Assembly: GCA_023053575.1 (NCBI GenBank)
Contig: JAKZAP010000022.1
Location: 483,001 to 547,000 of the forward strand
DNA: 64,000 nt
Source of the DNA: Branchinecta lynchi
Taxonomy: Eukaryota > Arthropoda > Branchiopoda > Anostraca > Branchinectidae
Reading direction: 5' to 3'
The notes under the pieces were generated by a model, which was not told the origin of the DNA, made no database searches, and was given only the letters and a program-made list of their open reading frames with translations. Within the stretch, counting starts at the first letter, position 1. Each line of letters starts with the position of its first letter. A program made the position numbers and the translations under genes. Shown here piece by piece: positions 31,339 through 53,690 of the stretch.

Positions 31339-31960
31339 CAGGGGCGTCGCAAGGGGGGGGGGGGTGCGGTGGGTGCAGTACCCCCCCCCCCCCCCACCTT
31401 TTTGAGATTCGGTAAAATTTTGAGCCGGAGGCCCAAAATTTTTCTAAAACTGTTCGGTATTTTTTCGATTTACGGGGATTCGGTAGTTATAGAGAATCCT
31501 AAATAGGCTATCTGTATAAATCTCTTCGGTATAATGATCGGGATTCGGTATGATTGCCAGTATTCGGTGGTTATCACGAGTTTGGTGAGAGAATTTACTG
31601 AACTCATTTGGTAATTTTTCGATGCCGGAACTATTCTGTATATTAATGGAGATTCCGTAGTTACACAGACTCCCGAATAAGCTATTGGTTCAAAATTATT
31701 CGGTATCATGATTGGGATTCGGTAATTTATTCAGTACAATTTCCAGGATTAGGACGTTAACCACGAATCCTGACTTTGTTCCAGTTTCGACGAAAGTATA
31801 CCGAATATGAATATTGTTCGGTAGTCTTTCGATACCAAAACAATTCGGTATACCGGGATACGGTGGTTATACAGAATCCCGAACACGCTATCGGTCTAAA
31901 CTTATTCGGTATAATAACTGGGGTTCGGTAACTTATTCGTTGTAATTGGCCATATTCCTG
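31339..31960 (+). repeat. Repeat family D, copy D1
   Basis: Begins AGGGGCGTCGCAAG with G12 and C17 runs, then repeats of ATTCGGTA-(A/G)TTAT, each ~70-100 bp apart. The reverse copy D2 is at 53000-53690. No coding sequence. Confidence 0.7.
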
Positions 31961-32382: not shown

Positions 32383-32733
32383 TCCAGATTTTTCTTCCGG
32401 ATTCCAGACAGCCGTTTTCGTCGAGACGGATCTGGAAGGTGAAGCCAAGCAAACAAAGGCTGGAAGTCCGGGGTGTTGGACATTTGGACACCCCAGATTC
32501 CGGACGTCTGGAAGGTACCATAGAGACAATCCATTCGAGAGACAGAACATGTAGGAAAGAAGGGGAAAGTGATTAGATATTTGAAATGCGAGGAAATGTT
32601 GAAGAATAGCATAACTGGATGTTATCACTATCATGAAAATCTGGAAGGGTTGGCTTGACTATGCGGAAGCCCCGGACGTCTGGTAATCTGGAATATGAAG
32701 CCTGGCTTTAAGCCAACTATTAAGTGGCGTTTT
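32383..32733. repeat. Left arm and half-spacer of fold-back element F, the Polinton target
   Basis: 32383-32705 is the inverse of 43074-43710: CTTCCAGATTTTTCTTCCGG, GGTACCATAGAGACAATCCA, CTTGACTATGCGGAAGCCCC. The Polinton lies in the spacer of this pre-existing inverted repeat. The adjoining spacer words AAGCCAACTATTAAG are also found at 46040. Confidence 0.75.
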
Positions 32734-32739: not shown

Positions 32740-33327
32740 AGTAGTATATAAAGCCGGGTTCTACTCCACCCTCCCCCCAATTTCAAAACCCCATTTTAAC
32801 ATCAATTTCTTAAATTTTAACATCCTTTTTACCAAATTATCCCCCTTTTTAAGAACATTTTTATTTTCTTAATTCCAAAATAAAGGATACAAGAAATGAG
32901 TATATTACCCTTTACTACATATAAAATACTACAATATACTACTACTTCTTTTTTTTTTTACATTTTTCATTTTTTATTCAAATATTACTGAGTAAACAGT
33001 TCTAAATCCACATATGTTTCTTTGTTCTTGTTTTCGCGTACAATCGGTTGCAAAACTAGATTTTTCTTTAAAAGTAATTCGTTAGCAATGGCATTATATT
33101 TCTGAGTTATAAACAAATCACATGGTTTGTCATTATGATTAATAACTACAACCAACTTATCACCATATTTTGTCTTAGCAATTCTCATTTTAACGATAGC
33201 ATATTTCAAACCTAACACTAGTTCTTCTTTCCTGATTGTCTCATTGTATTTATTCATTCTGATTGTATTCAAGACTTCCTTTGTAGACTCCATTTATTAG
33301 GGGATGATTTTATTAAATAAAAATCCA
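32740..33327 (+). repeat. Left terminal inverted repeat (588 bp)
   Basis: Inverse of 42292-42879, equal in length including an 11-T/11-A run. It holds a complete copy of the OB-fold-like gene and a TATATAAAG motif 5 bp from the tip. Confidence 0.95.
32985..33293 (-). CDS. OB-fold-like putative ssDNA-binding protein, TIR copy 1
   Basis: The protein has 102 residues and reads outward toward the left tip. The core KYAIVKMRIAKTKYGDKLVV followed by V-x-N and later DLFITQKY, LVLQPIV and YVDLEL has the strand pattern and TKYG turn seen in small OB-fold single-strand-binding proteins of transposon-rich animal genomes. A role in replication or end protection is inference only. The start is preceded by CCCCTAATAAATG. 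AATAAA lies a few bases past the stop. An identical protein is encoded in the other TIR; the only coding difference noted is a silent Ser codon. Only this left copy lies next to the heat-shock-type promoter region, so the two copies may be regulated differently. Confidence 0.7.
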   Translation of the reverse strand: MESTKEVLNTIRMNKYNETIRKEELVLGLKYAIVKMRIAKTKYGDKLVVVINHNDKPCDLFITQKYNAIANELLLKKNLVLQPIVRENKNKETYVDLELFTQ

Positions 33328-33383
33328 AAGCTCCTAATTACCGGCAGATCGTAACACCTGTGGTGTGAGAGATGCGTCACACT

Positions 33384-33411
33384 AAATATTCTCGAATATT
33401 CTCGAATATTT
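33384..33411. promoter_or_regulatory. Heat-shock element array 1 (four perfect pentamers)
   Basis: TTCTCGAATATTCTCGAA at 33389-33406 fits TTCnnGAAnnTTCnnGAA without mismatch; AAA and TTT at 33384-33386 and 33409-33411 are degenerate outer units. This is the HSF-trimer binding pattern. GATGCGTCAC flanks it on both sides (33371-33380, 33413-33422). It sits outside the TIR, 51 bp before TATA. Confidence 0.75.
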
Positions 33412-33449
33412 AGATGCGTCACCTCCAGCAGATAACAAGACTCGGCGGA

Positions 33450-33462
33450 GAAGATTCGCGAA
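33450..33462. promoter_or_regulatory. Heat-shock element array 2 (three perfect pentamers)
   Basis: GAAgaTTCgcGAA fits GAAnnTTCnnGAA without mismatch and abuts the TATA tract. Together with array 1 this gives seven perfect HSF half-sites in 75 bp. Confidence 0.75.
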
Positions 33463-33472
33463 TATATATATA
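33461..33472 (+). promoter_or_regulatory. TATA box for the rightward early gene
   Basis: AATATATATATA, directly after HSE array 2. A start site would fall near 33490-33500, 50-60 bp before the putative splice donor at 33552. Confidence 0.6.
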
Positions 33473-33551
33473 GTGTCGCGCATCTGGTTAAGGAGACATT
33501 TGTAAACAAGTTGAGATTAAGAAGGTGTTGAAGAAAGAAAAAATTTCCAAT

Positions 33552-33912
33552 GTAAGTATTTTTAGTTTTCTAGCGATAAAAACAAGGATATCCAGGTAGA
33601 TAGGAATAGCTGCATCTGAAACAAAAAATTACGCAAATATCAAATATACCACACGAGTTATCAGATGACGAAGCGCATCACAGGAGATGACGTAGGAACC
33701 AGATGGCCTGGACAGATTCTGTAAAGAATTTTTAATGGGATAGATAATGTTGCGAAGCGCATCACACGAGATGACGTAGGAAATTCTGTAAAGGAATTAT
33801 CTGGGTCAGATAATGTTGCGAAGCGTGTCACACGAGATGAAGTAGGAATCAAATGGCCTTCAAAAATTCTGTAAAGGAATCATCAAGGTCGTTAAAAGAT
33901 TTTTATTTTCAG
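33552..33912 (+). other. Putative 5'-leader intron of the 238-residue early gene
   Basis: Donor AAT|GTAAGTAT at 33552 and acceptor ATTTTTATTTTCAG at 33912, immediately before ATG at 33913. The inferred intron is 361 bp and contains three tandem copies of a GCGAAGCGCATCACACGAGA motif (33666, 33752, 33817), each followed by TGA(C/A)GTAGGAA. Confidence 0.6.
33664..33852 (+). repeat. Three tandem ~65-85-bp repeats with TGACGTAGGAA
   Basis: Copies begin near 33666, 33752 and 33817 (CGAAGCG..TCACA.GAGATGA.GTAGGAA, then ATTCTGTAAAG). TGACGT matches a CREB/ATF half-site. The last copy supplies the ATG at 33853, which argues that this ATG is not the true start of the next gene. Confidence 0.7.
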
Positions 33913-34629
33913 ATGAACAGCGAAGGTATTCAGAAGAAAACAGCAACCATTCCGAAAAAGTATATGAATGGGTTGTTCAAACTGGAGAAATCGGAGCAAG
34001 AAACATTCCTTTCGCTGTGGAGTAAGGTAGTCACAGCCTCAGATGAAGTCGAAGGTGAAGACCGTACGACAGCGTGTTCCTCTGTTGACGGGAAAAAAGA
34101 GAAGAGCGTGCAGTTTTTAGCCGATATTAAAGCGAATTTACATGCTTCGCGAAGGTTTGGAAACTTCAAAGTGGACGTAAGCATCAAGAAGGTGCTGAGC
34201 AGCAAAATATGTGGAGTCAGTTTGGAACAAGCAGAACGTTTAATTATTGATTTAAATAAAGTGGAGGTGTATTTGGATTATTTATCAGTGTTACTAAAAG
34301 CGAAAAAAGGTGAAGTGTATGCGTACATGCAAAAACTGTTCAATGACAACCCTGAGAATCTATACAAGTGTTTTCTTGAAGAACGATTTAAGAAATATGG
34401 AGAAAGCAAATCAACAATAAGAAGATATCTTCAGTTGTATGGATTAGTCCGCGAATATCCTGGAATAGCTTTCTGTGGGAAAGGGTACTATTGCATCGTC
34501 GAAAATGAAAAAGCTATTCGCAAAGCGATCCAAGAGGATGAGATATTGTCTTCATTACTCAAGGAGCATCCTGCGCAAGTTTTCTTATCCGATGAAGTGT
34601 TGATTGATTTTGATAATCTGAGTCTATAA
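33913..34629 (+). CDS. Unknown early protein, possible helix-turn-helix
   Basis: 238 residues from ATG 33913 (the frame is open from ATG 33853, adding 20 residues). I prefer 33913 because it directly follows a splice acceptor and the extra 20 codons come from a noncoding-looking repeat unit. The N terminus is basic. The middle has ICGVSLEQAERLIIDLNKVE and LDYLSVLLKAKKGEVY. The C-terminal third reads FKKYGESKSTIRRYLQLYGL, then VREYPGIAFCGKGYY, which looks like a helix-turn-helix followed by a wing. This resembles uncharacterised HTH-like proteins of animal virus-like transposons. It is the only gene under the heat-shock-type promoter. A role as regulator or replication initiator is a guess. 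AATAAA at 34650 follows the stop. Confidence 0.6.
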   Translation: MNSEGIQKKTATIPKKYMNGLFKLEKSEQETFLSLWSKVVTASDEVEGEDRTTACSSVDGKKEKSVQFLADIKANLHASRRFGNFKVDVSIKKVLSSKICGVSLEQAERLIIDLNKVEVYLDYLSVLLKAKKGEVYAYMQKLFNDNPENLYKCFLEERFKKYGESKSTIRRYLQLYGLVREYPGIAFCGKGYYCIVENEKAIRKAIQEDEILSSLLKEHPAQVFLSDEVLIDFDNLSL

Positions 34630-34720
34630 ATGTTGAATTAAGTTTTCTCAATAAATTGGTGTTTCATTGATTGAGTTATAAGCTAGATTTTGTTGCTAGG
34701 TGGTGGTTATGTGTGAAGAG

Positions 34721-35140
34721 TCACACTGGTGGAACATTCTTCTGAACTATTGATGTATTCTTGCAATATTTATAACCATTCAGACGGACTTGTTTCATGT
34801 ATTTTTCGCGAGGAAAAAATCGAAAGGTTTTACGCATCTCTGTTTCTCTCTGAATTACCTCCTCAATTGTTAACTGTCCGCATTTTAGCATTGACAACAA
34901 CTCAGTATAAAAATCATAAATAGTCCTAAATTCTGCTTTTCTATCAGCAATGCTTAATTGCTTTTCAATTATTTCGATGATAACAGCACCCAAACTTAAA
35001 GAAGCTAGCGGTAGCACTAGAAATGCAGACATTCCTGCTGCTGAAAAGAGGAATTTGGATACAAGTAAGCTATTACTTATATGATTGTAGTACTTGTAAC
35101 TGCGACGGTAAACATACATTTTCTTTTCTAATTCTTCCAT
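34721..35140 (-). CDS. Small two-helix membrane protein (SLATT-like layout)
   Basis: 139 residues, convergent with the early gene. A short N-terminal amphipathic helix (MEELEKKMYVYRRSYKYY) is followed by a hydrophobic hairpin, roughly residues 25-60 (LLVSKFLFSAAGMSAFLVLP, then LASLSLGAVIIEII). A long charged helix follows (ADRKAEFRTIYDFYTELLSM) with LTIEEVIQRETEMRKTFRFF. Paired membrane helices plus a coiled helix is the layout of SLATT-type proteins and of a family often seen next to Polinton genes. A channel, holin-like or membrane-remodelling role is speculation. The start ATG has the TATAAATG context shared by the element's genes. Its upstream region contains the iteron-like repeats. Confidence 0.6.
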   Translation of the reverse strand: MEELEKKMYVYRRSYKYYNHISNSLLVSKFLFSAAGMSAFLVLPLASLSLGAVIIEIIEKQLSIADRKAEFRTIYDFYTELLSMLKCGQLTIEEVIQRETEMRKTFRFFPREKYMKQVRLNGYKYCKNTSIVQKNVPPV

Positions 35141-35441: not shown

Positions 35442-35551
35442 ATGATGAATACTGCAGAGGTTATTCAGCTTTGTAAAAAGGTTATATCAAACAACAAAGC
35501 GGTTATACAAAGATTATCGCTATACACATATAATGAACTGCGGACTTATGC
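35442..35551 (+). CDS. N-terminal fragment of an unidentified element gene, cut by assembly gap
   Basis: ATGATG at 35442 (context CCCTATTAAATG) opens 36 residues, starting MMNTAEVIQLCKKVISNNKA and ending YNELRTY, then the sequence runs into 100 N. The frame happens to continue into the ATPase frame, but a 100-N gap usually marks unknown length, so this may be a different gene. A family B DNA polymerase would be the natural candidate for a hidden gene here. The 36 residues alone show no recognisable domain. Confidence 0.45.
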
Positions 35552-35651
35552 NNNNNNNNNNNNNNNNNNNNNNNNNNNNNNNNNNNNNNNNNNNNNNNNN
35601 NNNNNNNNNNNNNNNNNNNNNNNNNNNNNNNNNNNNNNNNNNNNNNNNNNN
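35552..35651. other. Assembly gap (exactly 100 N)
   Basis: Exactly 100 N. By common convention this marks a gap of unknown size. Missing sequence here could contain the ATPase N terminus and the polymerase gene expected for a Polinton. Confidence 0.98.
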
Positions 35652-36254
35652 CCTCAGTGGCCATTTAGACTCTTAATTTGTGGTAGTTCTGGAACAGGGA
35701 AAACTAACCTTCTTTTGAATTTAATTTATGAATATCTTTGTTTCAACCGAATATACTTGTATGCTAAAGATCTTGAAGAAGATAAATATCAAGACCTTAT
35801 AACCAATTTAACCACTTTGGAGTCACAATGCAAATCGAAAGTCTTAACAGTAAGTAACAATCTTGATGATAGTGTCGATGTTGACGACTTAGACCCTGAA
35901 TACCAAAACTTGATTATCTTTGACGATTTTGTCACTGAAAAAGACCAGAAGAAAATAGAAGATTTATTCATAAGAGGAAGAAAGAAAAATGCCTCAATTA
36001 TTTACTTGTCTCAAAGCTATCATAAAACGCCAAAGGTGGTAAGGCTCCAGTGCAATTATTTTGCATTCTTTCAGTGTTCTAATCCAAAAGAAGTAAAATT
36101 AATAAGACAAAGCCATGTATCCAGTATAGACAATGAAAAATTTCTCAAACAATTCGAGACGGCAACCAAGGGCTACGGTTTTTTCTTCATAGATTTAAAA
36201 ATAAAAGATAAAACCCTTAAGTACAGGAAAAACTTTGAAAAATTTACCGGATAA
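35652..36254 (+). CDS. A32/FtsK-HerA-type DNA packaging ATPase (5' part in gap)
   Basis: 200 visible residues. PQWPFRLLICGSSGTGKTNL carries the Walker A motif (GSSGTGKT) with the WPFRLLICG lead-in typical of Polinton and adintovirus ATPases. Walker B is LIIFDDFV. SIIYLSQSYHKTPKVVRLQC gives the sensor region. The enzyme would pump the genome into the capsid. The usual protein starts 15-30 residues before WPFR, so only a short N-terminal piece should be missing if the upstream fragment is another gene. The next gene starts 16 bp after its stop. Confidence 0.88.
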   Translation, partial: PQWPFRLLICGSSGTGKTNLLLNLIYEYLCFNRIYLYAKDLEEDKYQDLITNLTTLESQCKSKVLTVSNNLDDSVDVDDLDPEYQNLIIFDDFVTEKDQKKIEDLFIRGRKKNASIIYLSQSYHKTPKVVRLQCNYFAFFQCSNPKEVKLIRQSHVSSIDNEKFLKQFETATKGYGFFFIDLKIKDKTLKYRKNFEKFTG

Positions 36255-36270
36255 TTTATTTCTATAATAA

Positions 36271-36885
36271 ATGAATAAATTTGGTAGTGTTGGAAAAAAG
36301 GTTAGTAACGAATCGAAAGTTACTGACGAAAATGGTAACATTAACCTACATGATAGACGAATTATAAATTTAGGTGATGCCAAGGCAGACAAGGATGCTA
36401 TTAGCTTAAGATCTATGACTGTGATTATGAATCAATTTAAAGAACAAATGACTGCAGGACAAGTGCAAGCCAACCAATACTTTAGCGAAGATATCAACAG
36501 ATTAACTGCGATAGATGATTCTCCTGATAATTCGTTGGTAAGGAACAAAGATAAAGGGTTATTTGTAAAAGAAATAGTTCGAGTTAATGATAAAGAGATT
36601 AACGCTGAAAACAAGTTGATAACAAATGTTCAAAACCCTAGAAACAAAAATGATGCTGTTAATTTAGCAACGTTAACTATGAATCTTTTAGATTATGACA
36701 AAAAGCTTCTTGGGCAACACACCCATAACGGTATAATTGAAGGAAAGATTGCTGGCCAAAAAACTCGTATCGATAATATTGAAAGAGCAGTAGTAAATAT
36801 TTTAAAAAGGCTTCTAGAGCTAGAGCTAAAACCTGTTGACAAACCATTCGTTACCAGAATAGAAAAAATTATGGCTGGTAAATAA
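36271..36885 (+). CDS. Fibre-like protein with two phage tail-fibre-type repeats
   Basis: 204 residues. Two repeats of the N-hydrophobic-x-N-x-P/D-x4-DA pattern are visible: NLHDRRIINLGDAKADKDAI (residues 25-44) and NAENKLITNVQNPRNKNDAV (111-130). This motif is common in trimeric phage tail fibres and in some virion attachment proteins. A coiled-coil-like segment (KTRIDNIERAVVNILKRLLE) lies near the C terminus and could trimerise. The gene sits between the ATPase and core-protein genes. A virion spike or receptor-binding role is inference; no knob domain can be recognised. Start context is ATAATAAATG. Confidence 0.55.
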   Translation: MNKFGSVGKKVSNESKVTDENGNINLHDRRIINLGDAKADKDAISLRSMTVIMNQFKEQMTAGQVQANQYFSEDINRLTAIDDSPDNSLVRNKDKGLFVKEIVRVNDKEINAENKLITNVQNPRNKNDAVNLATLTMNLLDYDKKLLGQHTHNGIIEGKIAGQKTRIDNIERAVVNILKRLLELELKPVDKPFVTRIEKIMAGK

Positions 36886-37482: not shown

Positions 37483-37505
37483 GACCTCTAACTAATTTTG
37501 ATATT

Positions 37506-37850
37506 ATGGATGCATTAGGGGATATACCACAGTTTAGAGGTGTTTTCTCTTTAGATACGCTACCCAAACATATAAACGATTCGGAATGCGGTGTCATTAA
37601 TTATGATAAACTCGGAATGCCTGGAACTCACTGGGTTGCCTATTGTAATCTACCTGAATACCCCCATGTAGAATTTTTTGATTCTTTCGGTATTCCCCCA
37701 GGAAAAGAAATAATTAAATATCTAAGAACTTCAAAGAAAAAAATAGCTTATGAAAATCTTGCTGTTCAAAATATAGATGAATTAAACTGTGGACTTCACT
37801 GTATTTCCTACATTAAGCGCAAAATGAAGTTGGTAGCTTTTCGTTTATAA
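37506..37850 (+). CDS. Adenain-type cysteine protease
   Basis: 114 residues, short for the family but with the active site complete: His42 in GTHWVAY, Asp59 in EFFDSFGIPP, Gln88 and Cys95 in NCGLHCISY. The N-terminal GDIPQFRGVFSLDTLP is the usual Polinton lead-in, and ECGVINYD precedes the His. In adenoviruses and Polintons this enzyme cleaves capsid and core precursors during maturation. A matching site, L-M-T-G-N|G, is seen near the end of the protein at 40537-40893. Unlike almost all other genes here the ATG at 37506 lacks the TAAATG context (GATATTATGG), and the C terminus ends 15 residues after the CGLHC motif. Confidence 0.88.
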   Translation: MDALGDIPQFRGVFSLDTLPKHINDSECGVINYDKLGMPGTHWVAYCNLPEYPHVEFFDSFGIPPGKEIIKYLRTSKKKIAYENLAVQNIDELNCGLHCISYIKRKMKLVAFRL

Positions 37851-37867: not shown

Positions 37868-38035
37868 ATGGAGATTTATTGTATGAAATGTAAAAAGAGC
37901 ACTGATACTGAATCAGTGTTTAAGGCAGTGTCACAAAAAAATAATGTTCCAATGCTGAAAGGGAATTGTGTTATTTGCGGATCGAGGAAAAATCGCTTTT
38001 TAAAAAAAACCTCAACGCAGAAACAGATATTTTAA
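37868..38035 (+). CDS. Zinc-ribbon protein (DUF5679-like), overlaps integrase
   Basis: 55 residues. CMKC (residues 5-8) and CVIC (34-37) with KGNCVICGSRKNRF form the two-CxxC zinc ribbon seen as a small ORF in Polintons, adintoviruses and giant viruses. Start context TTCTAATAAATG. The ORF overlaps the integrase frame by 70 nt. At 37999-38005 it has T TTA AAA followed by further A, a classic slippery layout in its own frame; a -1 shift there enters the integrase. The ribbon may thus be both a free protein and the N-terminal domain of an integrase fusion. Confidence 0.75.
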   Translation: MEIYCMKCKKSTDTESVFKAVSQKNNVPMLKGNCVICGSRKNRFLKKTSTQKQIF

Positions 38036-38937
38036 AGACGTATTATTCTAATTATTCAGGTGTTGATGATATTCACAGAAAATTAAAAGAAAATGGAGTG
38101 AACGTGTCTAAAGATACAATAAAAAATGTGTTGCAAAATGAGAATGTGTATACGTTACACAAACCTTCCTATCATAACTTTGAAAGGAGGCGAGTGTATG
38201 TTCACTATGTTGATGAGCAATGGCAAGCTGATTTAGTTGACATGCAGAAATATAAAAAAGAAAATAATAAAACAAATTACATTTTAACTGTTATTGATTG
38301 CTTTAGTAAATATGCTTGGTGTATCCCTCTGAAAGACAAAACGGGTGCTGAAATAATAAACGCATTCAGCCACATCTTTAAAGAAAGAATTCCTAAGAAA
38401 CTACAAACTGATAAAGGTAAAGAATTTGTGATGAGAAATGTTCAAACTTTTTTGAAAAATAACGGCATACACTGGTTTGCATCTGAAAGCGAATTGAAAG
38501 CACAAATCGTTGAACGGTTCAATAGAACGCTAAAAGAAAAGCTATGGAAATATTTCACTCACAATAGCACTACTAATTGGATTGATATTTTACCTTTATT
38601 TGTGAGTAATTATAATAACTCGTACCACCGTTCAATACAAATGAAACCAGTTGATGCTAGTAAAAAGGTTAATCAGAAAAAGGTTTTTAGTGCTCTGTTT
38701 CCTCCAGTAGATGAGTACAAAATCACAGGAAACGTCAAAGTAGGGGATTTAGTCAGAATTAAAAAAGAAAAAAGTATTTTCGATAAAGGATATTTACCTA
38801 ATTATACGGATGAAGTATTTCAGATAGCAACCATCAGACCTACCATTCCCATTACTTATGAAATATCTGACAAAAGTGGGGAATTAATTCAAGGAGGGTT
38901 TTATGAAAAAGAACTTTCAAAATTTATTATGAAATAA
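37966..38937 (+). CDS. Retroviral-type (DDE) integrase of the Polinton
   Basis: The open frame has 323 codons from a TTG at 37966. An HTH-like segment comes first (GVDDIHRKLKENGVNVSKDT). The catalytic core has Asp in QWQADLVDMQ (residue 89), Asp in QTDKGKEF (149) and Glu in AQIVERFNRTLK (183), a D-D-33-E spacing. A C-terminal SH3-like piece (KVGDLVRIKKEKSIFDKGYL) follows. No chromodomain is seen. It would join the element ends to host DNA, consistent with the 6-bp duplication. The first in-frame ATG (38242) lies beyond Asp89, so normal initiation cannot make the enzyme; a frameshift from the zinc-ribbon ORF is the likely route. Confidence 0.88.
   Translation: MCYLRIEEKSLFKKNLNAETDILKTYYSNYSGVDDIHRKLKENGVNVSKDTIKNVLQNENVYTLHKPSYHNFERRRVYVHYVDEQWQADLVDMQKYKKENNKTNYILTVIDCFSKYAWCIPLKDKTGAEIINAFSHIFKERIPKKLQTDKGKEFVMRNVQTFLKNNGIHWFASESELKAQIVERFNRTLKEKLWKYFTHNSTTNWIDILPLFVSNYNNSYHRSIQMKPVDASKKVNQKKVFSALFPPVDEYKITGNVKVGDLVRIKKEKSIFDKGYLPNYTDEVFQIATIRPTIPITYEISDKSGELIQGGFYEKELSKFIMK
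37999..38005 (+). promoter_or_regulatory. Candidate -1 ribosomal frameshift site (T TTA AAA)
   Basis: X-XXY-YYZ heptamer in the zinc-ribbon frame, extended by four more A. The -1 frame leads straight into the integrase, which has no ATG until 38242, past its first catalytic Asp. A homopolymer indel in the assembly would give the same appearance. Confidence 0.5.
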
Positions 38938-40923: not shown

Positions 40924-42288
40924 ATGGCAGTAAATAAAGTTATCAGTCCGCAATGGAACATATTTGACGAAGCGCTTGTGGATGATACAGTGGTTAAATA
41001 TGAATTTAAAGAAATTCGAGAAACAGATGTGAATGTATCTAATAAATCAGAGTTTGAATTCGTAACAAAGAAATTAGATTCCTGGTTTTATCCAAGTGAA
41101 AGTTATCTTGATGTCAGTGTAAGAATAGTAAACGAAGATGGGACTCCTATAGCTGCAACCGATGTTGCTACTTTGACGAACAATGGATTTAATTTATTCA
41201 GTACCGCTGAATATGTAATAAACGATGAATCGGTTGAAAAAATTAATCATGTTGGTATTACAACTACCGTTACAAAGTTGATTGAATACTCTGATGATTA
41301 TTCTAGAAGTGCAGCAAGAAATCATTTCTGGTATAAGGATTATAATCAAGGAAAAGAAATTAATCCTGTTATTGCTTCGTTTACTGCAACTCCAGTAGTA
41401 GCAGGGGCTGCAGCAGGGGGTGGAACAGTCAGTTTGAGAAATAATAATAATTATAATAAAGGATTTGAAAAAAGATATAACAGAACAAAGAGCAGTAAAT
41501 TAGTAAATATGTATTTACCATTATCAGAATTGTTTGGATTTCTGAAAGGAAACAAACGATTCTTCAGAGGTGCATCGCATAAATTATTTCTAAGAAGAAA
41601 TGATGATAACAACATGATTATAAGAAATGGAAATACTAATTTCAAAGTAGTAATCGAGTATTTATCCTGGAAGATCCCTATTGTAGCTCCTAGTATCGAA
41701 ATGATGAGTGAATTAGAAAAGGATCTTGCTAAGGATAAAAAGCATAATCTGATGTGGGAAGCATGTAATAGTTATAAAAGTGATGTTAGTCAGAATAAGG
41801 AACACACCTGGAAAGTTGTGTCTGAGAGAAATAGTCCTACAAAAATCGTTGTGATGTTACAGAAAAATGAAAAGCATAACAATCAATTAATGAATAATAT
41901 GGTGTTTGATCATATGAATTTAACAGACATAGAACTTAGAATTAATGGGGATAAATATCCTGAAGAACCACTCAAATGCGACTTTAGCGATGAGAAATGT
42001 AAATACTCAAATCTTTACAATAGGTTCATACATTTGGGCTATAAGCAATTAGCATTTGATACTGGTAGTGTTGTTAGTATAGAAGAATTTAAAGAAGTAT
42101 ATCCACTATTCTGTTTCGATGTTTCCAAACACGAATCAAGTATATATAATGGAACAACTGCTGATATTGAAATAAGTTTAACATTAAAACACGCTCAGCC
42201 TGTACCATATAATATTTACTGTGTTATATATTATGAAAGAAAAGCTACATTAGGTATTATCAATAAAAATATGTATGTGAGTTTGTGA
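40924..42288 (+). CDS. Major capsid protein (double jelly roll)
   Basis: 454 residues. ISPQWNIFDEALVDDTVVKY near the start, FYPSESYLDVSVRIV and IEYLSWKIPIVAPS in the first jelly roll, and VYPLFCFDVSKHESSIYNGT with ADIEISLTLK near the end are hallmarks of Polinton-type double-jelly-roll capsid proteins. An Asn/Gly/Ala-rich loop (AGAAAGGGTVSLRNNNNYNK) sits at about residue 165. Trimers would tile the icosahedral shell. Full length and unbroken. Start context TCTTATATAAATG. It is the last unique gene before the right TIR, whose edge begins 3 bp after its stop. Confidence 0.9.
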   Translation: MAVNKVISPQWNIFDEALVDDTVVKYEFKEIRETDVNVSNKSEFEFVTKKLDSWFYPSESYLDVSVRIVNEDGTPIAATDVATLTNNGFNLFSTAEYVINDESVEKINHVGITTTVTKLIEYSDDYSRSAARNHFWYKDYNQGKEINPVIASFTATPVVAGAAAGGGTVSLRNNNNYNKGFEKRYNRTKSSKLVNMYLPLSELFGFLKGNKRFFRGASHKLFLRRNDDNNMIIRNGNTNFKVVIEYLSWKIPIVAPSIEMMSELEKDLAKDKKHNLMWEACNSYKSDVSQNKEHTWKVVSERNSPTKIVVMLQKNEKHNNQLMNNMVFDHMNLTDIELRINGDKYPEEPLKCDFSDEKCKYSNLYNRFIHLGYKQLAFDTGSVVSIEEFKEVYPLFCFDVSKHESSIYNGTTADIEISLTLKHAQPVPYNIYCVIYYERKATLGIINKNMYVSL

Positions 42289-42291
42289 GTC

Positions 42292-42879
42292 TGGATTTTT
42301 ATTTAATAAAATCATCCCCTAATAAATGGAGTCCACAAAGGAAGTCTTGAATACAATCAGAATGAATAAATACAATGAGACAATCAGGAAAGAAGAACTA
42401 GTGTTAGGTTTGAAATATGCTATCGTTAAAATGAGAATTGCTAAGACAAAATATGGTGATAAGTTGGTTGTAGTTATTAATCATAATGACAAACCATGTG
42501 ATTTGTTTATAACTCAGAAATATAATGCCATTGCTAACGAATTACTTTTAAAGAAAAATCTAGTTTTGCAACCGATTGTACGCGAAAACAAGAACAAAGA
42601 AACATATGTGGATTTAGAACTGTTTACTCAGTAATATTTGAATAAAAAATGAAAAATGTAAAAAAAAAAAGAAGTAGTAGTATATTGTAGTATTTTATAT
42701 GTAGTAAAGGGTAATATACTCATTTCTTGTATCCTTTATTTTGGAATTAAGAAAATAAAAATGTTCTTAAAAAGGGGGATAATTTGGTAAAAAGGATGTT
42801 AAAATTTAAGAAATTGATGTTAAAATGGGGTTTTGAAATTGGGGGGAGGGTGGAGTAGAACCCGGCTTTATATACTACT
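42292..42879 (-). repeat. Right terminal inverted repeat (588 bp)
   Basis: Inverse of 32740-33327. The inner edge is at TGGATTTTTATTTAATAAAA. It is followed by the right GGCGAA duplication (42880-42885) and then GCCCACTTGGAGAATATATT, the continuation of target repeat F. Confidence 0.95.
42326..42634 (+). CDS. OB-fold-like putative ssDNA-binding protein, TIR copy 2
   Basis: 102 residues, same protein as 33293-32985, here reading outward to the right tip. Start context CCCCTAATAAATG, with AATAAA after the stop (TTGAATAAAAAATG). Being downstream of the capsid gene, this copy may be expressed late, while the left copy sits by the heat-shock-type promoter. It shares the KYAIVKMRIAKTKYG OB-like strands. 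Retention of both copies open is expected, since TIRs are homogenised by replication. Confidence 0.7.
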   Translation: MESTKEVLNTIRMNKYNETIRKEELVLGLKYAIVKMRIAKTKYGDKLVVVINHNDKPCDLFITQKYNAIANELLLKKNLVLQPIVRENKNKETYVDLELFTQ

Positions 42880-42885
42880 GGCGAA

Positions 42886-43710
42886 GCCCACTTGGAGAAT
42901 ATATTGCCGGGCTTGATTGTAGTAGCAACTTTTATATATTGTACCCAAGAGAAAATTAAATCGAGGGCCGCCGGCGAAAATTTTCGAAGTCCAATTTTTT
43001 TTTGTTCTCTTTTAGGCTAAAATTAAACTGCTGCTATCGCTTACCGTGGATTAAGTACATGACTCTAACAGCCAGGCTTCACCTTCTAGATTCCCAGACG
43101 CCCGGGGCTTCCGCATAGTCAAGCCAACCTTTCCAGATTTTGATGATAATGATGATATCCAATTTCGCTATTCTTCAACATTCCCTAGATGTTCCCTTCA
43201 CATTTCAAATATCTCTTGCATCCCAGTCATAATGTCAATCACTTTCCCTTTCTTCCTACATTTGCATATTTTTTTTGTCTCTCGAATGGATTGCCTCTAT
43301 GGTACCTTCCAGACATCCGGAAACTGGGGTGTCCAACACCCCGAGCCTCGTTTTTGTTGCATGCTGCAGGTCCACTTCTCGGTCGATTCCGGACTGATTC
43401 TTCCTACATCCGTTTTTACGCTGCAGCGCTTCCGAGGAGGACGGCTGCGCTTCTTGAGAATCACGGACCGACCAAGTCCGTGCTTCCCTGCAAGATGCTG
43501 CAGTGCTGCCGCTTCAACCAAGAAGAAAGTGAATACCAAAACGCATATTGTGCAAAAGCAAAGAAGTGCTGCAGCAGCGATGCGGCAGCGCTATTGCAAC
43601 AAAAACGAGGCTCCGGAATTCCAGACGTTTTTGGCCTGGCTTTACCTTCCACATCCGTCCCGACGAAAACGGCTGTCTGGAATCGAAGAAAAATCTGGAA
43701 GGTGAAGCTT
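42886..43710. repeat. Right half of fold-back element F
   Basis: 42886-43070 continues the target spacer (GCCCACTTGGAGAATATATT). 43074-43710 is the right arm, inverse of 32383-32705, enlarged by the MITE at 43343-43613. Confidence 0.75.
43343..43613. mobile_element. MITE inserted in the right arm of F (271 bp)
   Basis: Perfect 18-bp inverted ends GAGCCTCGTTTTTGTTGC. The left arm of F lacks it, so it arrived after the fold-back formed. The three-frame ORFs here are not genes. Confidence 0.8.
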
Positions 43711-46723: not shown

Positions 46724-49700
46724 CTAGACTTTAATGTCTGCTTTCGTTAGTAGGTCGAGGACATCGCTGTAGATCCTTGTTTCTTCTGCTGTTGGCAATT
46801 TGCTGGACAGGCTTATTGTAGAGATATCTGGTTTTAGACCCAAAGATCTAAAGGTTGAAATCATTTTCTTCCTCCTTTCGGTCAGGTGTCTGCATTGGAA
46901 TAGGATATGCTGCAGAGACTCTTCCCACTGGAGACAGAATCTGCAGAGAGGGGATGGGCTGAGCTTTCGTTGGAATAGCTCCTTCTTCAGGAGAACTGAT
47001 TGGGTCTTCACTCTGAAGAACGTAGTCGTTCCAAGCCTGGTTTTGAATGGGGAGACCAGAGGGGGTTGAAGCGCTGGAATAATCTGCCGCAATCTGTTTC
47101 TGAGGACATCTCTGAATGCCGTTGGTCTGTTAGTGGATGGGAGGGCTCTGCTAATGCTTTGTTGGGCGGCTTGATCTGCAACTTCATTTCCGTGTATGCC
47201 GCAGTGGCTTGGGACGTGCTGAAACCTGATGACGACATCTTCCCCTTGTAGTTCTTGGATTACCTCTCTGATGTCCGTTAGGTCGTGGTCTCCGGTTTCC
47301 CATTTGATCTTTTTGATTAGAAGGAGAGCTGACTGCGAGTCACTGAAGACAACGATTCTCTTCGTGGTAGGGGGGGATTGTATGACTTCTTTCAAAGCAA
47401 GTAGGATTGCTTTCAGTTCGGCGGTCAGGATTGAAGAGTTGTCTGGGATCCTTTGCTGGATGATGAGGTTCATTGATGGTATGAAGGCTCCAGCTGCACT
47501 CTTATGTCCTTGAACTGAGCCGTCTGTGTAGATTTCCAAGTGTTCCTGGTACATCTCGTGCTTCCGTAGGTGGAAAAGCTGGGTGATCAAGGATGAAGGC
47601 ATTTCGTCTTTCTTAGAGGGAATCAGCTCTGTTTCTGCATCTATGGCGTCCATGGTCCATGGGGCGGAAGAAGGGTGAGGGGGGTGATCCTTCTGCAAAT
47701 CCATTCTCCAGTCGGGTATCAAACGTTGGAAGTTGTTGAATGAAGATCTTTGTTTAGTTGCCATGTGATGCTGTTTGCTTGGTTGTTGAAAAACTGACTC
47801 ATAGATTATGTGTTTTCTTCCATAACACTGAATTTTTGAGTAGTATTTCAGTGTTAATATCTTCAGTCGCTCTTCGATTTTTGGGATTCCTGATATTTCT
47901 CCAAGTGATTTCAGAGATGTATGTGAGTGAAGGCCGAACGCGACTCGTATTGCCATGTTTTGCACTGTTTCTAATATTCTGATGAGGTTTATGGAACATG
48001 TGCCGAATGCTTGAATACCGTATTCCATTTTCCCTCGGATGTACTGTTTGTAGAACTCCATTAAAGTATGGGGGTTGGAGCCCCACTCGGTTCCTGCCAT
48101 CCGCTTCATGATGTTGATCCGTCTCATGGCTGTCGTCTTAATTTCCAAGACTTGGGGTAGCCAAGTTAGCTTCTGATCAAAGGTCACTCCCAGAACTTTC
48201 CCGCTTGTGGAGATGTCTAGGATTCTTCCTTTCAGTTTGATTTCGGGACAGACAATCTTTCTTTTCCGGTGGAAGAGTATTAGTTTTGTTTTTTCTGCTG
48301 ATAAGGGTATCCCGGCTCTGGTAGAGTATTCGTTTATTTCGTCCAAGGATTGTTGTGCTAGTTTGGTTACTGCAGCGGAGTCGCGTCCTTTGTGGCAAGA
48401 TACGAGGTCGTCTGCAAACATCCCTTTTAGTCCTTGGTGATCTTTCAGTTGGATGTCTGATACGAATATCAGGAATAGTAGAGTACTTAATATAGCACCT
48501 TGGGGGAGACCTTGTTCGATTTTTCTTACTGAGGACAGTATATTACCTATCCTTACTACAAGTTCTCTCTGCTTTAGGTAATTCTCAATGAATTTCCAAA
48601 AGAAGCTGGGGAATCCTATTTCTTTCATTTTTTCGACAAGGAGGTCATGGCCGACGTTGTTGTAGGCTCCTTCAAAATCGAAGAGAATTGCAATTGCTAT
48701 TTCGCCTTCGTCAAGGCTTGTTCTGATGAAGTTCTCAAGTCTGATAATGTTGTCGATGGTACCGTGTCGTTTTCTGAAGCCTGTTTGTTCCGCTTGGACT
48801 ACGAGGTTGCTTTCGATGATCCACTCTAGTCTACGATATATCATCTTTTCAAAGGCTTTCCCAATGCATGGAAGGATAGCTATGGGCCGGTAGGATTTGG
48901 GGTCTGCTGGTGCTTTTCCTTGTTTGAGAATCGCTTTGATCGTTGATGTCTTCCAAACCTTTGGGAATGAGCTCTTCTTCCACGCTAAATTGAATACTTT
49001 CAACATTCGCTGACGGTACTGGGCTGGGGTTTTCGCTATCCAGACATTCTCGATTTCATCTATTCCTGGCGCTGATTTTAGGTTCAGGCTATTTATGGTG
49101 TCTTCAAGTTCGTCGGCTGAAAACGGGGCTTCAAATTCCAGTGAATGCTGAAATGATTTCTTTGGTCTGCTACTATCTTTAGGCTGGTTTTGGCTGGTGG
49201 GGGAGCTGGAGCGTTTGCTCTGGAATAGGTCGGCAAAAACTTCAGCTTTTGCTTTGTCCTCTGTAATTGGTTTTCCGTCTTCCTCGATGTCGTAGGTTTG
49301 CTTCTGTTTGTTTGCAGGTTTGCCATTCATCCTACAGACAAAATTATGGACTTTTCCTGAAGGGTGATTAGGGTCCAGGGAACTGTTGAAGCCTTGCCAA
49401 GCTTGTTTCTTGGCTTCCGACACTGTCCTCTTGGAGATTGCTTCCATCCTTCTCATTTCGATTAGGCTTTCCACTGACGGGTTTCTCTGGTGCCTTCTCT
49501 GCGCCCTTTTCTTATTTTCTATTGCCTCTCTGCACCTTTGATTCCACCATGGTCTTGGGGTCGTGTCTTGAGATGTTCTTGGGGGTCTCGATTTGGCTGA
49601 AACTGGAATGGCTGATTTTGCCGCTTCGAGAATGATTTTATTGAGAAGAGAAGCAGCTTCTTCGACGTCAAAGCATGAGTCTATCTCTTCGTAATCATAT

Positions 49701-50494
49701 TCTTGGAGAATATTTTCAAAAAGATTCCAATTTGCTTTCTTTGTTATGAAATGTGGATATTGTTCCTTTGGTGTTGCGTGAACTGCACAGAGTGTCGTAA
49801 GTATTGCATAATGGTCTGTGAAAAGTTCGTTTATTCTTTCAATAACTATGTTGTCGGCTAACTTGGTGCTTCCCAACTGTAGGTCGATCGTCGATGGGAC
49901 GTTATTCCTTGGGCATAAATATGTATTGAGGTTTTTGGGGGTAAACACAACGACGTCTTGTAGTTCTGCGAGGATTCTTTCCACACTTTTCCCTGACTTA
50001 TTCGTCTTCCTGCTACCCCACATAGGGTTGTGAGAGTTAAAATCTCCTACTATGAAAATTTCTTTGTAGGACTTCATAACTTCTTTCAATGTACCTTCAA
50101 TGTCATTATTCCCATTAGGGTTATAATATGAATACACTGCTAAGGGGTTTTTATTATTCCTCTCTATGGTCACCCCAACCACATCATTGTCATTATTCCA
50201 CTCTTTGACACTAATAGGTGAGTGTTTCAGGTTTCTATTTACTAGTATAGCAGCTCCACCTCCTCGTCTGTCCGAGCCTCGGTCTTTTCGGTATGTTACG
50301 TATCCTTCAATTTCTAATGTACGGAACTCGTTGAGGTTTGTCTCTTGCAAACAAATTATATCAACACTTTTCTTACTCAGGAATTCACTTAACTTTTTTA
50401 TTTTAATGTTATTCGCTGAAACTATGTTCCACTGTAGGATACTTATCTGTTCATGGTTCCTCTGGTTTGTTGATTTGGGGTTGGTTTTATCCAT
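46724..50494 (-). CDS. LINE 2 ORF2: APE endonuclease, reverse transcriptase and RNase H
   Basis: 1256 residues. Endonuclease: ISILQWNIVSANN, CLQETNL, VGDFNSHNPMWG and FTDHYA. Reverse transcriptase: SYRPIAILPCIGKAFEKMIY, motif A LFDFEGAYNN, motif B GLPQGAILSTLLF, motif C GMFADDLVS. RNase H: EIYTDGSVQGHK, LTAELKAILLAL, VFSDSQSALLL and HVPSHCGIHGNEVADQAA, so all four acidic residues are kept. A CCHC finger (CRFCLQWEESLQHILFQC) ends it. It nicks DNA, copies the LINE RNA and degrades the hybrid strand. The RNase H places it in the I/Jockey-like group. No lesion is seen. The start ATG overlaps the ORF1 stop (ATGGATAA), implying termination-reinitiation. Confidence 0.92.
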   Translation of the reverse strand: MDKTNPKSTNQRNHEQISILQWNIVSANNIKIKKLSEFLSKKSVDIICLQETNLNEFRTLEIEGYVTYRKDRGSDRRGGGAAILVNRNLKHSPISVKEWNNDNDVVGVTIERNNKNPLAVYSYYNPNGNNDIEGTLKEVMKSYKEIFIVGDFNSHNPMWGSRKTNKSGKSVERILAELQDVVVFTPKNLNTYLCPRNNVPSTIDLQLGSTKLADNIVIERINELFTDHYAILTTLCAVHATPKEQYPHFITKKANWNLFENILQEYDYEEIDSCFDVEEAASLLNKIILEAAKSAIPVSAKSRPPRTSQDTTPRPWWNQRCREAIENKKRAQRRHQRNPSVESLIEMRRMEAISKRTVSEAKKQAWQGFNSSLDPNHPSGKVHNFVCRMNGKPANKQKQTYDIEEDGKPITEDKAKAEVFADLFQSKRSSSPTSQNQPKDSSRPKKSFQHSLEFEAPFSADELEDTINSLNLKSAPGIDEIENVWIAKTPAQYRQRMLKVFNLAWKKSSFPKVWKTSTIKAILKQGKAPADPKSYRPIAILPCIGKAFEKMIYRRLEWIIESNLVVQAEQTGFRKRHGTIDNIIRLENFIRTSLDEGEIAIAILFDFEGAYNNVGHDLLVEKMKEIGFPSFFWKFIENYLKQRELVVRIGNILSSVRKIEQGLPQGAILSTLLFLIFVSDIQLKDHQGLKGMFADDLVSCHKGRDSAAVTKLAQQSLDEINEYSTRAGIPLSAEKTKLILFHRKRKIVCPEIKLKGRILDISTSGKVLGVTFDQKLTWLPQVLEIKTTAMRRINIMKRMAGTEWGSNPHTLMEFYKQYIRGKMEYGIQAFGTCSINLIRILETVQNMAIRVAFGLHSHTSLKSLGEISGIPKIEERLKILTLKYYSKIQCYGRKHIIYESVFQQPSKQHHMATKQRSSFNNFQRLIPDWRMDLQKDHPPHPSSAPWTMDAIDAETELIPSKKDEMPSSLITQLFHLRKHEMYQEHLEIYTDGSVQGHKSAAGAFIPSMNLIIQQRIPDNSSILTAELKAILLALKEVIQSPPTTKRIVVFSDSQSALLLIKKIKWETGDHDLTDIREVIQELQGEDVVIRFQHVPSHCGIHGNEVADQAAQQSISRALPSTNRPTAFRDVLRNRLRQIIPALQPPLVSPFKTRLGTTTFFRVKTQSVLLKKELFQRKLSPSPLCRFCLQWEESLQHILFQCRHLTERRKKMISTFRSLGLKPDISTISLSSKLPTAEETRIYSDVLDLLTKADIKV

Positions 50495-52259
50495 CAGTTG
50501 GGTCAGAAGTGTCCATTCCTGGTTGATTTTCTATGTTGGTATTCTCAGAATTTCTTGAGTGTTGGGAGACTGTGGATGAGTTTTTCCCTTGTTTCTGACC
50601 TGCGTTTTCTGTAGAGGTGTTCGAGCTTCCTTTCTGAGGGATGACTTCTAGGTTGGTTGCCCTGGTTTTCATCTCTTGAAATATCTGCTGGGCTCCTGCC
50701 AGTATCTCTTGTCCCAGGAACATGGAGACGGCCTCTATCTTCATCAGTCCCTTGATTGATTCAGGATGGTTACTGCTGTTAATAAGCTCGGTGAGTGCTA
50801 GTAATAACATGATGGGTTGGAGAGCTTCTCTGATTTCGTGCGAAACTTGGGGCTTCATTGTGTTTTCATTCGATGCGGCATATAAGGTAGGAGTTGGTTG
50901 ATGTGAGTGAGGAAATGGTGAGATTCCTTGGAGCGAAGTTGGTCGGGATGGTCCTGGGAGGAGTGTTACTGGAGTTGATGCACGGGAGCTCTGAGTGCTT
51001 GCTCTTGTCCTGGGACCGGTTCCAGGTCTCCTGACAAAACGTCTGGGTGTTTCAACTGTGTGTTGTGCTGGTTCTTCTGTTCTCTGATGGGTAGTTTGCC
51101 ACCCTCTAGATGGTCTTGGTAGTTCGGGCCAAGCCTTCCTATCTTCTTTTGGACAGTTTGTTGTTGTTGTTTTCTTCGGTTCCTCTTTCTTCCCCTCTTT
51201 GGCTAAAGTAGTCCTGCTCTCTAACTCTTTCACAATGGCCGCTGCTAAGCCTATTGGGATCTGCTTTGTTTCTGCTATTCTCAGAACTTTACACCTGTTC
51301 GCATAAGCTGCACAGATATTGGAGTCCGTTGGTTTGTGTTGTCCTTTGCAGTTCTTGCAGAACATTTCTTTTATGCAGTCCGGTTCGTTATGGCCTTTCT
51401 CGGAGCATCTCGCACAGGTCTGTTCTGATGATGTACAATTGTTTGAAGTATGGCCAAACAGGAAACATTTCTTGCACTGCATAGGTTTGTCTTTGTAGAT
51501 CTTGAAGGGTTTGGCATCTCCCATGACATATATTTTTTCTGGCAGTGCCTTTTGTCCAATCACCACCGCGACTGACTTGCTTGGGGTCAGTGTTGTTCCT
51601 TGTCTGACGCTGAGTCTTGTTACCTCACGAACATCCAACAAACGGTTCCTTTCGTCCAAGCAACTGCTACTGATGTCTTCATCCGAGTACCCTGCTGGGA
51701 TATTGTATACTACAATCTTGCAGGTCATCTGTTCTCGAGGGGTTAGCTTTGCTGCTGCAACTTTAAGTCCACTGATCATATTTAAGAGGAGGGCATGTTC
51801 GACTGCTGGTCCGTCCTGTAGATAAATATCAAGGTTTCCTGACCTCAAAATGTTTAGGCTGAAGTTAACCCTCAATTTTCGGAAAATATCTGACCTGATG
51901 TCTTCTATGTTCTTGATGTCGAATTTTTGGCTGATTACTGAGGGAGAGAAGCGCACTGCAACTAGTTGGGTTTTTGCCGTCTCTTGCTCAGCTGGTAGGG
52001 GAAGGCCGTCTTTGTTACCCTGTTGTGGTTGTGAAACAAGTAATGGGGATTCTGAATGTCGCCCTCTTTTGCTAGGTTTCTGGCCGCTTCCATCTGCATT
52101 TTTCCCACTTGGTGGGGGTAGAACTTCTTCTGCCGGGGAGACGACTCCAGAACGGACTGTGTTGAATGTATCCTCTTCTCCATCTTCCGAGGAGTCAAGT
52201 TGTACATCGACAGTTGTCTTGTACATGTTTTGGATTGGTGGATAGTTAGTCTTGGACAT
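50487..52259 (-). CDS. LINE 2 ORF1: Gag-like protein with three CCHC knuckles
   Basis: 590 residues. The N-terminal third is acidic and disordered, then an RRM-like region (NIEDIRSDIFRKLRVNFSLN, LRSGNLDIYLQDGPAVEHAL). Three zinc knuckles follow: CKKCFLFGHTSNNC, CARCSEKGHNEPDC and CKNCKGQHKPTDSNIC. Then comes a Pro/Thr/Arg-rich tail. This domain order is standard for ORF1 of I/Jockey-type LINEs and serves to bind LINE RNA and chaperone reverse transcription. The stop overlaps the ORF2 start by 8 nt. Confidence 0.9.
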   Translation of the reverse strand: MSKTNYPPIQNMYKTTVDVQLDSSEDGEEDTFNTVRSGVVSPAEEVLPPPSGKNADGSGQKPSKRGRHSESPLLVSQPQQGNKDGLPLPAEQETAKTQLVAVRFSPSVISQKFDIKNIEDIRSDIFRKLRVNFSLNILRSGNLDIYLQDGPAVEHALLLNMISGLKVAAAKLTPREQMTCKIVVYNIPAGYSDEDISSSCLDERNRLLDVREVTRLSVRQGTTLTPSKSVAVVIGQKALPEKIYVMGDAKPFKIYKDKPMQCKKCFLFGHTSNNCTSSEQTCARCSEKGHNEPDCIKEMFCKNCKGQHKPTDSNICAAYANRCKVLRIAETKQIPIGLAAAIVKELESRTTLAKEGKKEEPKKTTTTNCPKEDRKAWPELPRPSRGWQTTHQRTEEPAQHTVETPRRFVRRPGTGPRTRASTQSSRASTPVTLLPGPSRPTSLQGISPFPHSHQPTPTLYAASNENTMKPQVSHEIREALQPIMLLLALTELINSSNHPESIKGLMKIEAVSMFLGQEILAGAQQIFQEMKTRATNLEVIPQKGSSNTSTENAGQKQGKNSSTVSQHSRNSENTNIENQPGMDTSDPTDG

Positions 52260-52999: not shown

Positions 53000-53690
53000 G
53001 GTAACTTCCGAATCCTGGTAATTGTTACGAATAAATTACGGAATCCCAGTTATTATACCGAATAAGTTTAGACCGATAGCATGTTCGGGATTCTGTATAA
53101 CTACCGGATCCCGTTTATTATACCGAATTGTTTTGGTATTGAAAGACTACCGAACAATATTCATATTCAGTATACTTTCGTCGAAACTGGAACAAAGTCA
53201 GGATTCGTGGTTAACTTCCTTATCCTGGAAGTTATGCTGAATAAATTATTATAAAAATCCTGGAAATTATGCTGCATAAATTATTATAAAAATCCTGGAA
53301 ATTATGCTGAATAAATTACCGAATCCCAATCATGATACCAAATAATTATGAATCAATAGCTTATTAGGGATTCTGTGTCACTACGGATTCTCCATAAATA
53401 TACCAAATATTTCCGGTATCGGAAAATTACCAAATGATTGCAGTAAATTCTCTCACCAGATTCGTGATAACTACCGAATACTGGCAATTATACCGAATCC
53501 CGATCATGATACGGAAGAGATTTGTACAGATAGCCTATTTAGAATTCTGTATAACTACCGAATCCCCGTAAATATACAGAACAGTTCTGCTTTCGAAAAA
53601 ATACCGAACAATTTTAGTAAAGTTTTACCGAATCTCAAAAAGGCGGGGGGGTGCCTCCTCCCCCCCCTTTCGAAGCCCCTGGTAGGGGTA
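53000..53690 (-). repeat. Repeat family D, copy D2 (inverted relative to D1)
   Basis: Ends CGAAGCCCCTGG with C9 and G7 tracts and repeats TACCGAATCC, ATTATACCGAAT and CATGATACC words. It is the inverse of 31339-31960. A ~50-bp unit (ATCCTGGAAATTATGCTG) is tandemly repeated at 53218-53330. Confidence 0.7.

What the first reader, a model, noticed from the sequence alone, without database searches (positions are those of the whole stretch)
33384..33472. Heat-shock promoter architecture driving the first gene of a Polinton-like element
Seven perfect nGAAn/nTTCn half-sites in two arrays (TTCnnGAAnnTTCnnGAA at 33389-33406; GAAnnTTCnnGAA at 33450-33462) sit directly before a TATATATATA box. Downstream are a plausible leader, splice donor, acceptor and ATG. 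This is the layout of hsp70-type promoters. If real, the element couples its early gene to the host stress response, as temperate viruses couple induction to host damage. I know of no described Polinton with an HSF-controlled switch.
Basis: partly seen in the sequence, partly recalled or inferred. Interest (0 to 1): 0.88.

Follow-up and report, generated by a model that had tools for sequence, protein, structure and literature searches.

The report
Heat-shock-type promoter on a young Polinton
A recently spread virus-like mobile element carries strong binding-site motifs for the cell's heat-stress regulator in front of its first gene, but close relatives of the element lack them, so this looks like a lineage-specific promoter upgrade rather than a fixed stress switch.

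Summary
Seven perfect HSE units (4 at 33389-33406, 3 at 33450-33462) abut TATATATATA just inside the left terminal repeat of a Polinton-type element; both arrays together arose in 0 of 5000 simulated leaders. The family is young: 26 of 40 scored matches to the promoter are identical over 221 bp, window included. The 34-bp HSE block occurs exactly 179 times, so it supplies 179 of the 361 perfect four-unit HSEs in this 576-Mb genome.

A sister promoter type has 21 matches. In the three read with their gene, gene 1 is intact (96-97% identical), but the four-unit array is absent and the second array and TATA run are weakened. Four other relatives show neither gene 1 nor HSEs in the 3.4 kb read. 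The four-unit array is a doubled 10-bp unit, single in 3 of 52 distinct copies; ONSEN's heat element arose by such a duplication.

Best reading: a lineage-specific, probably HSF-responsive promoter, not a conserved switch. No expression or binding data were available.

The parts
32740..33327 (.). left terminal inverted repeat, perfect copy of 42292-42879; starts AGTAGTATAT, preceded by GGCGAA
   Evidence: 588 nt, 100%
42292..42879 (.). right terminal inverted repeat; followed by GGCGAA (6-bp target duplication)
32985..33293 (-). 102-aa ORF inside the TIR, divergent from gene 1; a second copy at 42326-42634 +
   Evidence: 99% identical in relatives L075-L078
33370..33380 (+). AGATGCGTCAC, first copy; this copy is unchanged in the sister lineage (CRE/ATF-like, name recalled)
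33385..33412 (+). HSE array 1: four perfect units (33389-33406) built from two tandem 10-bp units AATATTCTCG
   Evidence: two or one unit among copies
33412..33422 (+). AGATGCGTCAC, second copy, flanking HSE array 1
33450..33462 (+). HSE array 2: three perfect units GAAGATTCGCGAA
33463..33472 (+). TATATATATA run directly after array 2 (2 bp shorter in many copies, 4 bp in L071)
33473..33551 (+). presumed non-coding first exon (33491-33551 differs by 1% between lineages)
   Evidence: transcription not shown
33552..33912 (+). presumed intron with three repeats of a GAAGCG...GATGA(C/A)GTAGGAA unit; length varies among copies
33913..34629 (+). gene 1, 238 aa, no recognised family
   Evidence: without stops in 147 of 150 scored copies
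34721..35140 (-). 139-aa ORF, present (whole or in part) in the four relatives that lack gene 1 at this place
35552..35651 (.). 100 N, probably an assembly gap; the listed ORF 35442-36254 runs across it and is not one gene
35652..36254 (+). Pox_A32-like packaging ATPase, part after the gap
   Evidence: E 3e-13
37500..37850 (+). possible adenovirus-type cysteine protease
   Evidence: Peptidase_C5 E 0.05, below cut-off
37945..38937 (+). retroviral-type integrase
   Evidence: rve E 9e-15
40924..42288 (+). double-jelly-roll major capsid protein
   Evidence: PF21738 E 3e-27

Best explanation
The site is the promoter of the first gene of a young, high-copy Polinton lineage (here 'H'). Shown: it carries a four-unit and a three-unit perfect HSE next to a TATA run. 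The strong array consists of two copies of a 10-bp TTCnnGAA unit, and a close sister lineage ('D') lacks it. Inferred: host HSF binds the arrays and raises transcription of gene 1 under heat or proteotoxic stress, as in the plant retroelement ONSEN. Inferred: this was gained in, or lost outside, one lineage, so it is a regulatory variant and not a fixed Polinton switch. A by-product, shown at sequence level only, is that the lineage has supplied the host genome with about half of its perfect four-unit HSEs.
For: Chance model 0 of 5000. 179 exact copies of the 34-bp block among 361 four-unit HSEs. 72 of 83 gene-1 copies on C1-C13 and the first 11 Mb of C14 have the exact block upstream; three of the 11 misses still hold four perfect units. 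Of 30 loci chosen by gene 1 (the window's own included), 29 keep array 1 and 29 keep array 2. Between H and D, divergence is concentrated in the core promoter: 18-25% at 33412-33472, against 1% in exon 1, 2.8% in the intron and 2.2% in gene 1. H has more promoter copies (179 exact) than D (21 matches of at least 94%; the two counts use different criteria). Precedent: ONSEN's 4P element arose by duplication of an nTTCnnGAAn proto-element (PMC5059998, passages) and is HSF-bound in vitro and heat-activated (PMC3907296, passages).
Against: No transcript, HSF binding or heat data. Array 1 is absent, and array 2 reduced, in the 3 D copies read and in the H/D recombinant L065, all with gene 1; D is itself multi-copy. 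Four relatives do without gene 1 and HSEs at this place. Within H the family is so young that lack of substitutions in array 1 (0 of 28 sites, P 0.03-0.06 by a simple rate model) is weak evidence of constraint, and array 2 (pi 0.011) is no less variable than exon 1 or gene 1 (0.006, L065 left out). Three of 52 distinct copies have one 10-bp unit less. The host hsp70 control failed: the fetched stretch upstream of one gene is intron-like and shows no HSE array.
Confidence: 0.52

Rival explanations
1. The HSE look is a by-product of a 10-bp tandem duplication in an A+T-rich promoter. Gene 1 is really controlled by the GATGCGTCAC (CRE/ATF/bZIP-like, name recalled) motif and the TATA region, and heat is irrelevant.
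For: The first GATGCGTCAC is unchanged between the lineages (33370-33381, H-D divergence 0) while the HSE arrays are not kept. TRF finds the 10-bp repeat and its copy number varies. The intron repeats also hold TGACGT cores.
Against: A second, non-tandem three-unit HSE lies 43 bp further on, next to TATA. The joint chance is low.
Confidence: 0.3
2. The 30-bp imperfect palindrome between 11-bp direct repeats is a binding site for an element-encoded protein or a replication/recombination structure, not an HSF site.
For: Array 1 is a palindrome with 88% complementary 16-nt arms (I4) flanked by exact 11-bp repeats and lies just inside the TIR. Promoter segments recombine among copies (L065, L012, L016).
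Against: In the window element it is present only near the left end, and D copies lack it yet are multi-copy. Unit spacing fits HSEs exactly in two separate arrays.
Confidence: 0.1
3. The HSEs matter mainly for the host: as in Caenorhabditis Helitrons, the copies spread HSF sites and recruit neighbouring genes, with little effect on the element itself.
For: 179 of 361 perfect four-unit HSEs derive from this promoter. Helitron precedent PMC6927752 (passages).
Against: No neighbouring-gene data; silencing of the copies is possible and untested.
Confidence: 0.08

Closest known systems
ONSEN/ATCOPIA78 retrotransposon of Brassicaceae (PMC3907296, PMC5059998; passages seen)
   Same: A mobile element with a four-unit HSE in its promoter, built by duplication of an nTTCnnGAAn unit; relatives lack it
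   Different: Retrotransposon in plants with HSF binding in vitro and heat activation; here a DNA element of a presumed animal host and no functional data
HSE-bearing Helitrons of Caenorhabditis (PMC6927752; passages seen)
   Same: One transposon group supplies a large share of the genome's HSEs
   Different: There HSF-1 binding and effects on host genes are reported; here HSEs sit at the element's own gene promoter and are untested
Copia of Drosophila, said to contain sequences homologous to hsp promoters (one sentence in PMC12910113, passages)
   Same: An animal mobile element with an hsp-like promoter sequence
   Different: Retrotransposon; original report not seen
HSF control of viral promoters (for example PMC12047821 on HSF2 and gamma-herpesvirus reactivation; title and start of abstract only)
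   Same: A host heat-shock factor acting on a viral switch promoter
   Different: Human viruses, not Polintons; paper not read
Polinton/Maverick (adintovirus-like) elements
   Same: TIRs, 6-bp target duplication, integrase, DJR capsid protein, A32-type ATPase
   Different: No HSF-linked promoter seen in four capped listings of the held library; DNA polymerase not seen, probably because of the assembly gap
hsp70-type promoters
   Same: Arrays of nGAAn units close to a TATA box and a short leader (recalled comparison)
   Different: Array 2 touches the TATA run; no start site, pausing or induction data

Membership tests
Polinton/Maverick | long terminal inverted repeats | tested here: met
   588 nt, 100%
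Polinton/Maverick | 6-bp target-site duplication | tested here: met
   GGCGAA on both sides, one insertion looked at
Polinton/Maverick | retroviral-type integrase | tested here: met
   PF00665 E 9e-15
Polinton/Maverick | double-jelly-roll major capsid protein | tested here: met
   PF21738 E 3e-27
Polinton/Maverick | FtsK/A32-type packaging ATPase | tested here: met
   PF04665 E 3e-13 on the part after the gap
Polinton/Maverick | adenovirus-type cysteine protease | tested here: inconclusive
   PF00770 E 0.051, below cut-off
Polinton/Maverick | protein-primed DNA polymerase B | tested here: inconclusive
   Not seen in the window; may lie in the 100-N gap, where other copies start a protein with SAP domains. 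The PF03175 genome search did not complete
HSF-responsive (hsp70-type) promoter | at least three contiguous perfect nGAAn units near a TATA box | tested here: met
HSF-responsive (hsp70-type) promoter | HSF binding | not testable with these tools
   needs ChIP or gel shift
HSF-responsive (hsp70-type) promoter | heat-induced transcription | not testable with these tools
   needs RNA data
HSF-responsive (hsp70-type) promoter | same HSE grammar as the host's hsp70 genes | tested here: inconclusive
   hsp70 exons found; the 1.5 kb before the start of one gene looks like a 5' intron and holds only a two-unit site; no second gene could be fetched
ONSEN-like heat-responsive element | four-unit HSE made by duplication of a proto-HSE | tested here: inconclusive
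   the array is two tandem 10-bp units and one-unit copies coexist, but the direction of change is not proven
Conserved HSF switch of the element family | HSE arrays conserved wherever gene 1 is | tested here: not met
   sister lineage L080-L082 and L065

The most novel reading that the evidence does not exclude
Duplication of a 10-bp proto-HSE, together with a stronger TATA run, put gene 1 of one Polinton lineage under HSF control and helped drive its burst (at least 179 H promoters against 21 D matches). In the process it gave the animal host about half of its perfect four-unit HSEs, a repeat of the ONSEN story in a virus-like DNA element.
Probability: 0.28. Interest if true: 0.85.

Novelty: new variant of a known kind. 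Interest (0 to 1): 0.58.

Why it matters
If the arrays work, a virus-like DNA transposon would be tied to the host's proteotoxic-stress response, and natural H and D promoter alleles with nearly the same gene 1 would let this be tested directly. It would also mean that one recent invasion supplied 179 of 361 strong HSE sites of a genome, a possible source of new heat-responsive host genes.

Tried and rejected
Gene 1 could not be named: no match of note in Pfam, PHROGs or the PDB, and a single-sequence AlphaFold model had mean pLDDT 37.8, so no fold search was run. No confirmed relatives of gene 1 or the capsid protein in IMG/VR. Rejected: 'short Polinton without polymerase'. The gene1-to-capsid distance is 8.3 kb in the window but 12.4-15.3 kb, mostly near 12.5, in the 18 pairs I found by eye, and 35552-35651 is a 100-N gap. 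Not supported: that the other strong HSEs are also Polintons; none of 20 other sites fetched (of 21 among the first 50 listed) matched the element's proteins by tblastn. Conservation within H was tried as a test of function but the copies are too young. The host hsp70 promoter control was inconclusive. The polymerase search PF03175 and a count of one-unit blocks did not complete.

Full report
What was claimed and what is there. All of it is in the sequence at the stated coordinates. In 5000 simulations that keep the leader's own trinucleotide make-up, the mean number of four-unit arrays was 0.0002 and no leader held two arrays. The four-unit array is a tandem repeat of a 10-bp unit, so it may have needed one two-unit site and one duplication rather than four separate units.

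The element. Perfect 588-bp terminal inverted repeats lie at 32740-33327 and 42292-42879, with GGCGAA on both outer sides. Between them are genes for an A32-type ATPase, a possible adenovirus-type protease (weak), a retroviral-type integrase and a double-jelly-roll capsid protein. The window copy is not complete: 35552-35651 is 100 N, and the ORF listed across it joins two genes. In five other copies the protein that starts at 35442 continues differently; one of them, scanned, carries SAP domains. The distance from gene 1 to the end of the capsid match is 12.4-15.3 kb in 18 pairs read by eye, mostly near 12.5, against 8.3 kb here. I infer that the polymerase gene falls in the gap; the search that would show it did not complete.

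Age and number. The window lies in a 575.7-Mb genome of 216 contigs, probably an animal (inference from LINEs and an hsc70-like gene start). Of 40 scored matches (235 candidates) to the 221-bp promoter, 26 are identical, the window included. The 150 scored gene-1 copies (of 270 candidates) are at least 97% identical, and 147 are free of stops. The exact 34-bp array-1 block occurs 179 times, 0 for the reversed control. Since the genome holds 361 perfect four-unit HSEs (reversed control 52), this one promoter supplies 179 of 361. The other 182 also exceed the control, partly through other repeats.

Conservation within the lineage. I read 53 fetched loci, which are 52 distinct copies because L007 and L022 are the same place; the window's own copy is L009. 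Eight loci were chosen by promoter match, 30 by gene 1, 6 because they hold array 1, 2 because no array was listed near them, and 7 from the lower part of the gene-1 list. Counted as loci, 48 have both arrays intact (47 distinct copies), 3 have one 10-bp unit less, 1 has a broken array 2 and 1 (L065) has neither. Of the 30 chosen by gene 1, 28 have both. By coordinates, 72 of 83 gene-1 copies have the exact block upstream. Of the 11 misses, three still hold four units (C1:11778013; L012 and L024), one has two units (L066), one none (L065), and six were not read. Array 1 shows no substitution in 28 sites, but at the background rate this has P of 0.03-0.06. Diversity among 44 loci (L065 left out) is 0 in array 1, 0.011 in array 2, 0.006 in exon 1 and gene 1, 0.028 in the intron and about 0.03 in the TIR. 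The gene-1 figure is biased low because many loci were chosen by gene 1, and six were chosen for array 1. Such young copies cannot prove constraint.

The decisive comparison. L065 carries a different core promoter in an otherwise ordinary copy. A search with it gave 21 matches of at least 94% identity among 40 scored (two of them only 620 bp apart); the other 19 are the H promoter at 80-81%. In the three such copies read (L080-L082) gene 1 is intact and 96-97% identical, and exon 1 and splice sites are nearly the same, but array 1 is absent, array 2 is down to TTCGTGAA, and the TATA run reads ATATTTA. Between up to seven H copies and three D copies the core promoter differs by 18-25% (33412-33472; 65% in 33473-33490, where the alignment is doubtful), while exon 1 differs by 1%, the intron by 2.8% and gene 1 by 2.2%. 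The first GATGCGTCAC is unchanged in both. L012 and L016 (and in part L020) combine a D-like upstream flank with the H core, so the core promoter has moved or changed as a unit. Without an outgroup I cannot say whether array 1 was gained in H or lost in D.

Wider relatives. Six stretches were fetched where a 5' end was expected from the position of a capsid gene. Four are the same family by TIR (96-98%) but have other filler, no gene 1 and no HSE array in that slot, as far as the 3.4 kb show; two were not the element's 5' end. About 18 of 126 scored capsid genes pair with a listed gene-1 copy (by eye; the gene-1 list is cut at 150 of 270 candidates). Gene 1 and its promoter thus look like an optional cassette.

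Interpretation. Elements that hitch to HSF are known: ONSEN, whose four-unit element arose by duplication of an nTTCnnGAAn proto-element (PMC5059998, passages; PMC3907296, passages), and HSE-rich Helitrons (PMC6927752, passages). HSF action on viral promoters is also in print by title (PMC12047821, listing only). Four searches of the held open-access library (20 of 26 listed; 1 of 1; 15 of 36; 12 of 17) listed no paper that by title and start of abstract reports HSEs in a Polinton. I saw passages of seven papers in all, and subscription journals are mostly not held. The most likely reading is a lineage-specific HSF-responsive promoter. The main rival is that GATGCGTCAC and TATA do the work and the HSEs are incidental. 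Expression data would separate the two.

Noticed in passing
35442-36254 (N at 35552-35651): The listed 270-aa ORF joins two genes across a 100-N assembly gap; other copies continue with a SAP-domain protein there, so the window element is shorter than paired relatives by about 4 kb.
   Followed up: partly
33328-34757; L075-L078: The slot between left TIR and the 139-aa minus-strand ORF is interchangeable: gene 1 + HSE promoter, or one of two different fillers with tRNA-like stretches (by eye).
   Followed up: partly
G000 whole genome: 871 first-look candidates for the double-jelly-roll capsid domain (126 scored, all over the cut-off): probably a very large Polinton load.
   Followed up: no
L045, L047, L050; L041, L042: Other repeats that carry perfect four-unit HSEs and are related to each other around the site, so more than one mobile family may spread HSEs here.
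   Followed up: no
36271-36885: Element protein with a weak match to the phage T7 tail-fibre N-terminal domain (E 2.6e-5, just under the cut-off) and to PHROG tail fibres.
   Followed up: no
31389-31947 / 53020-53651 and 32400-32712 / 43065-43684: The Polinton sits inside nested inverted-repeat structures; a LINE-like pair of ORFs (46724-52259, minus) lies in the same block.
   Followed up: no
33669-33890: Intron repeats (spacing 66 and 84 bp) with GATGACGTAGGAA cores; the stretch from the TIR to 30 bases into gene 1 varies from 556 to 643 bp among copies.
   Followed up: partly
G000:C6:18038726, 18042630, 18046536: Three array-1 blocks on one strand spaced 3.9 kb apart, suggesting a tandem array of partial elements.
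   Followed up: no
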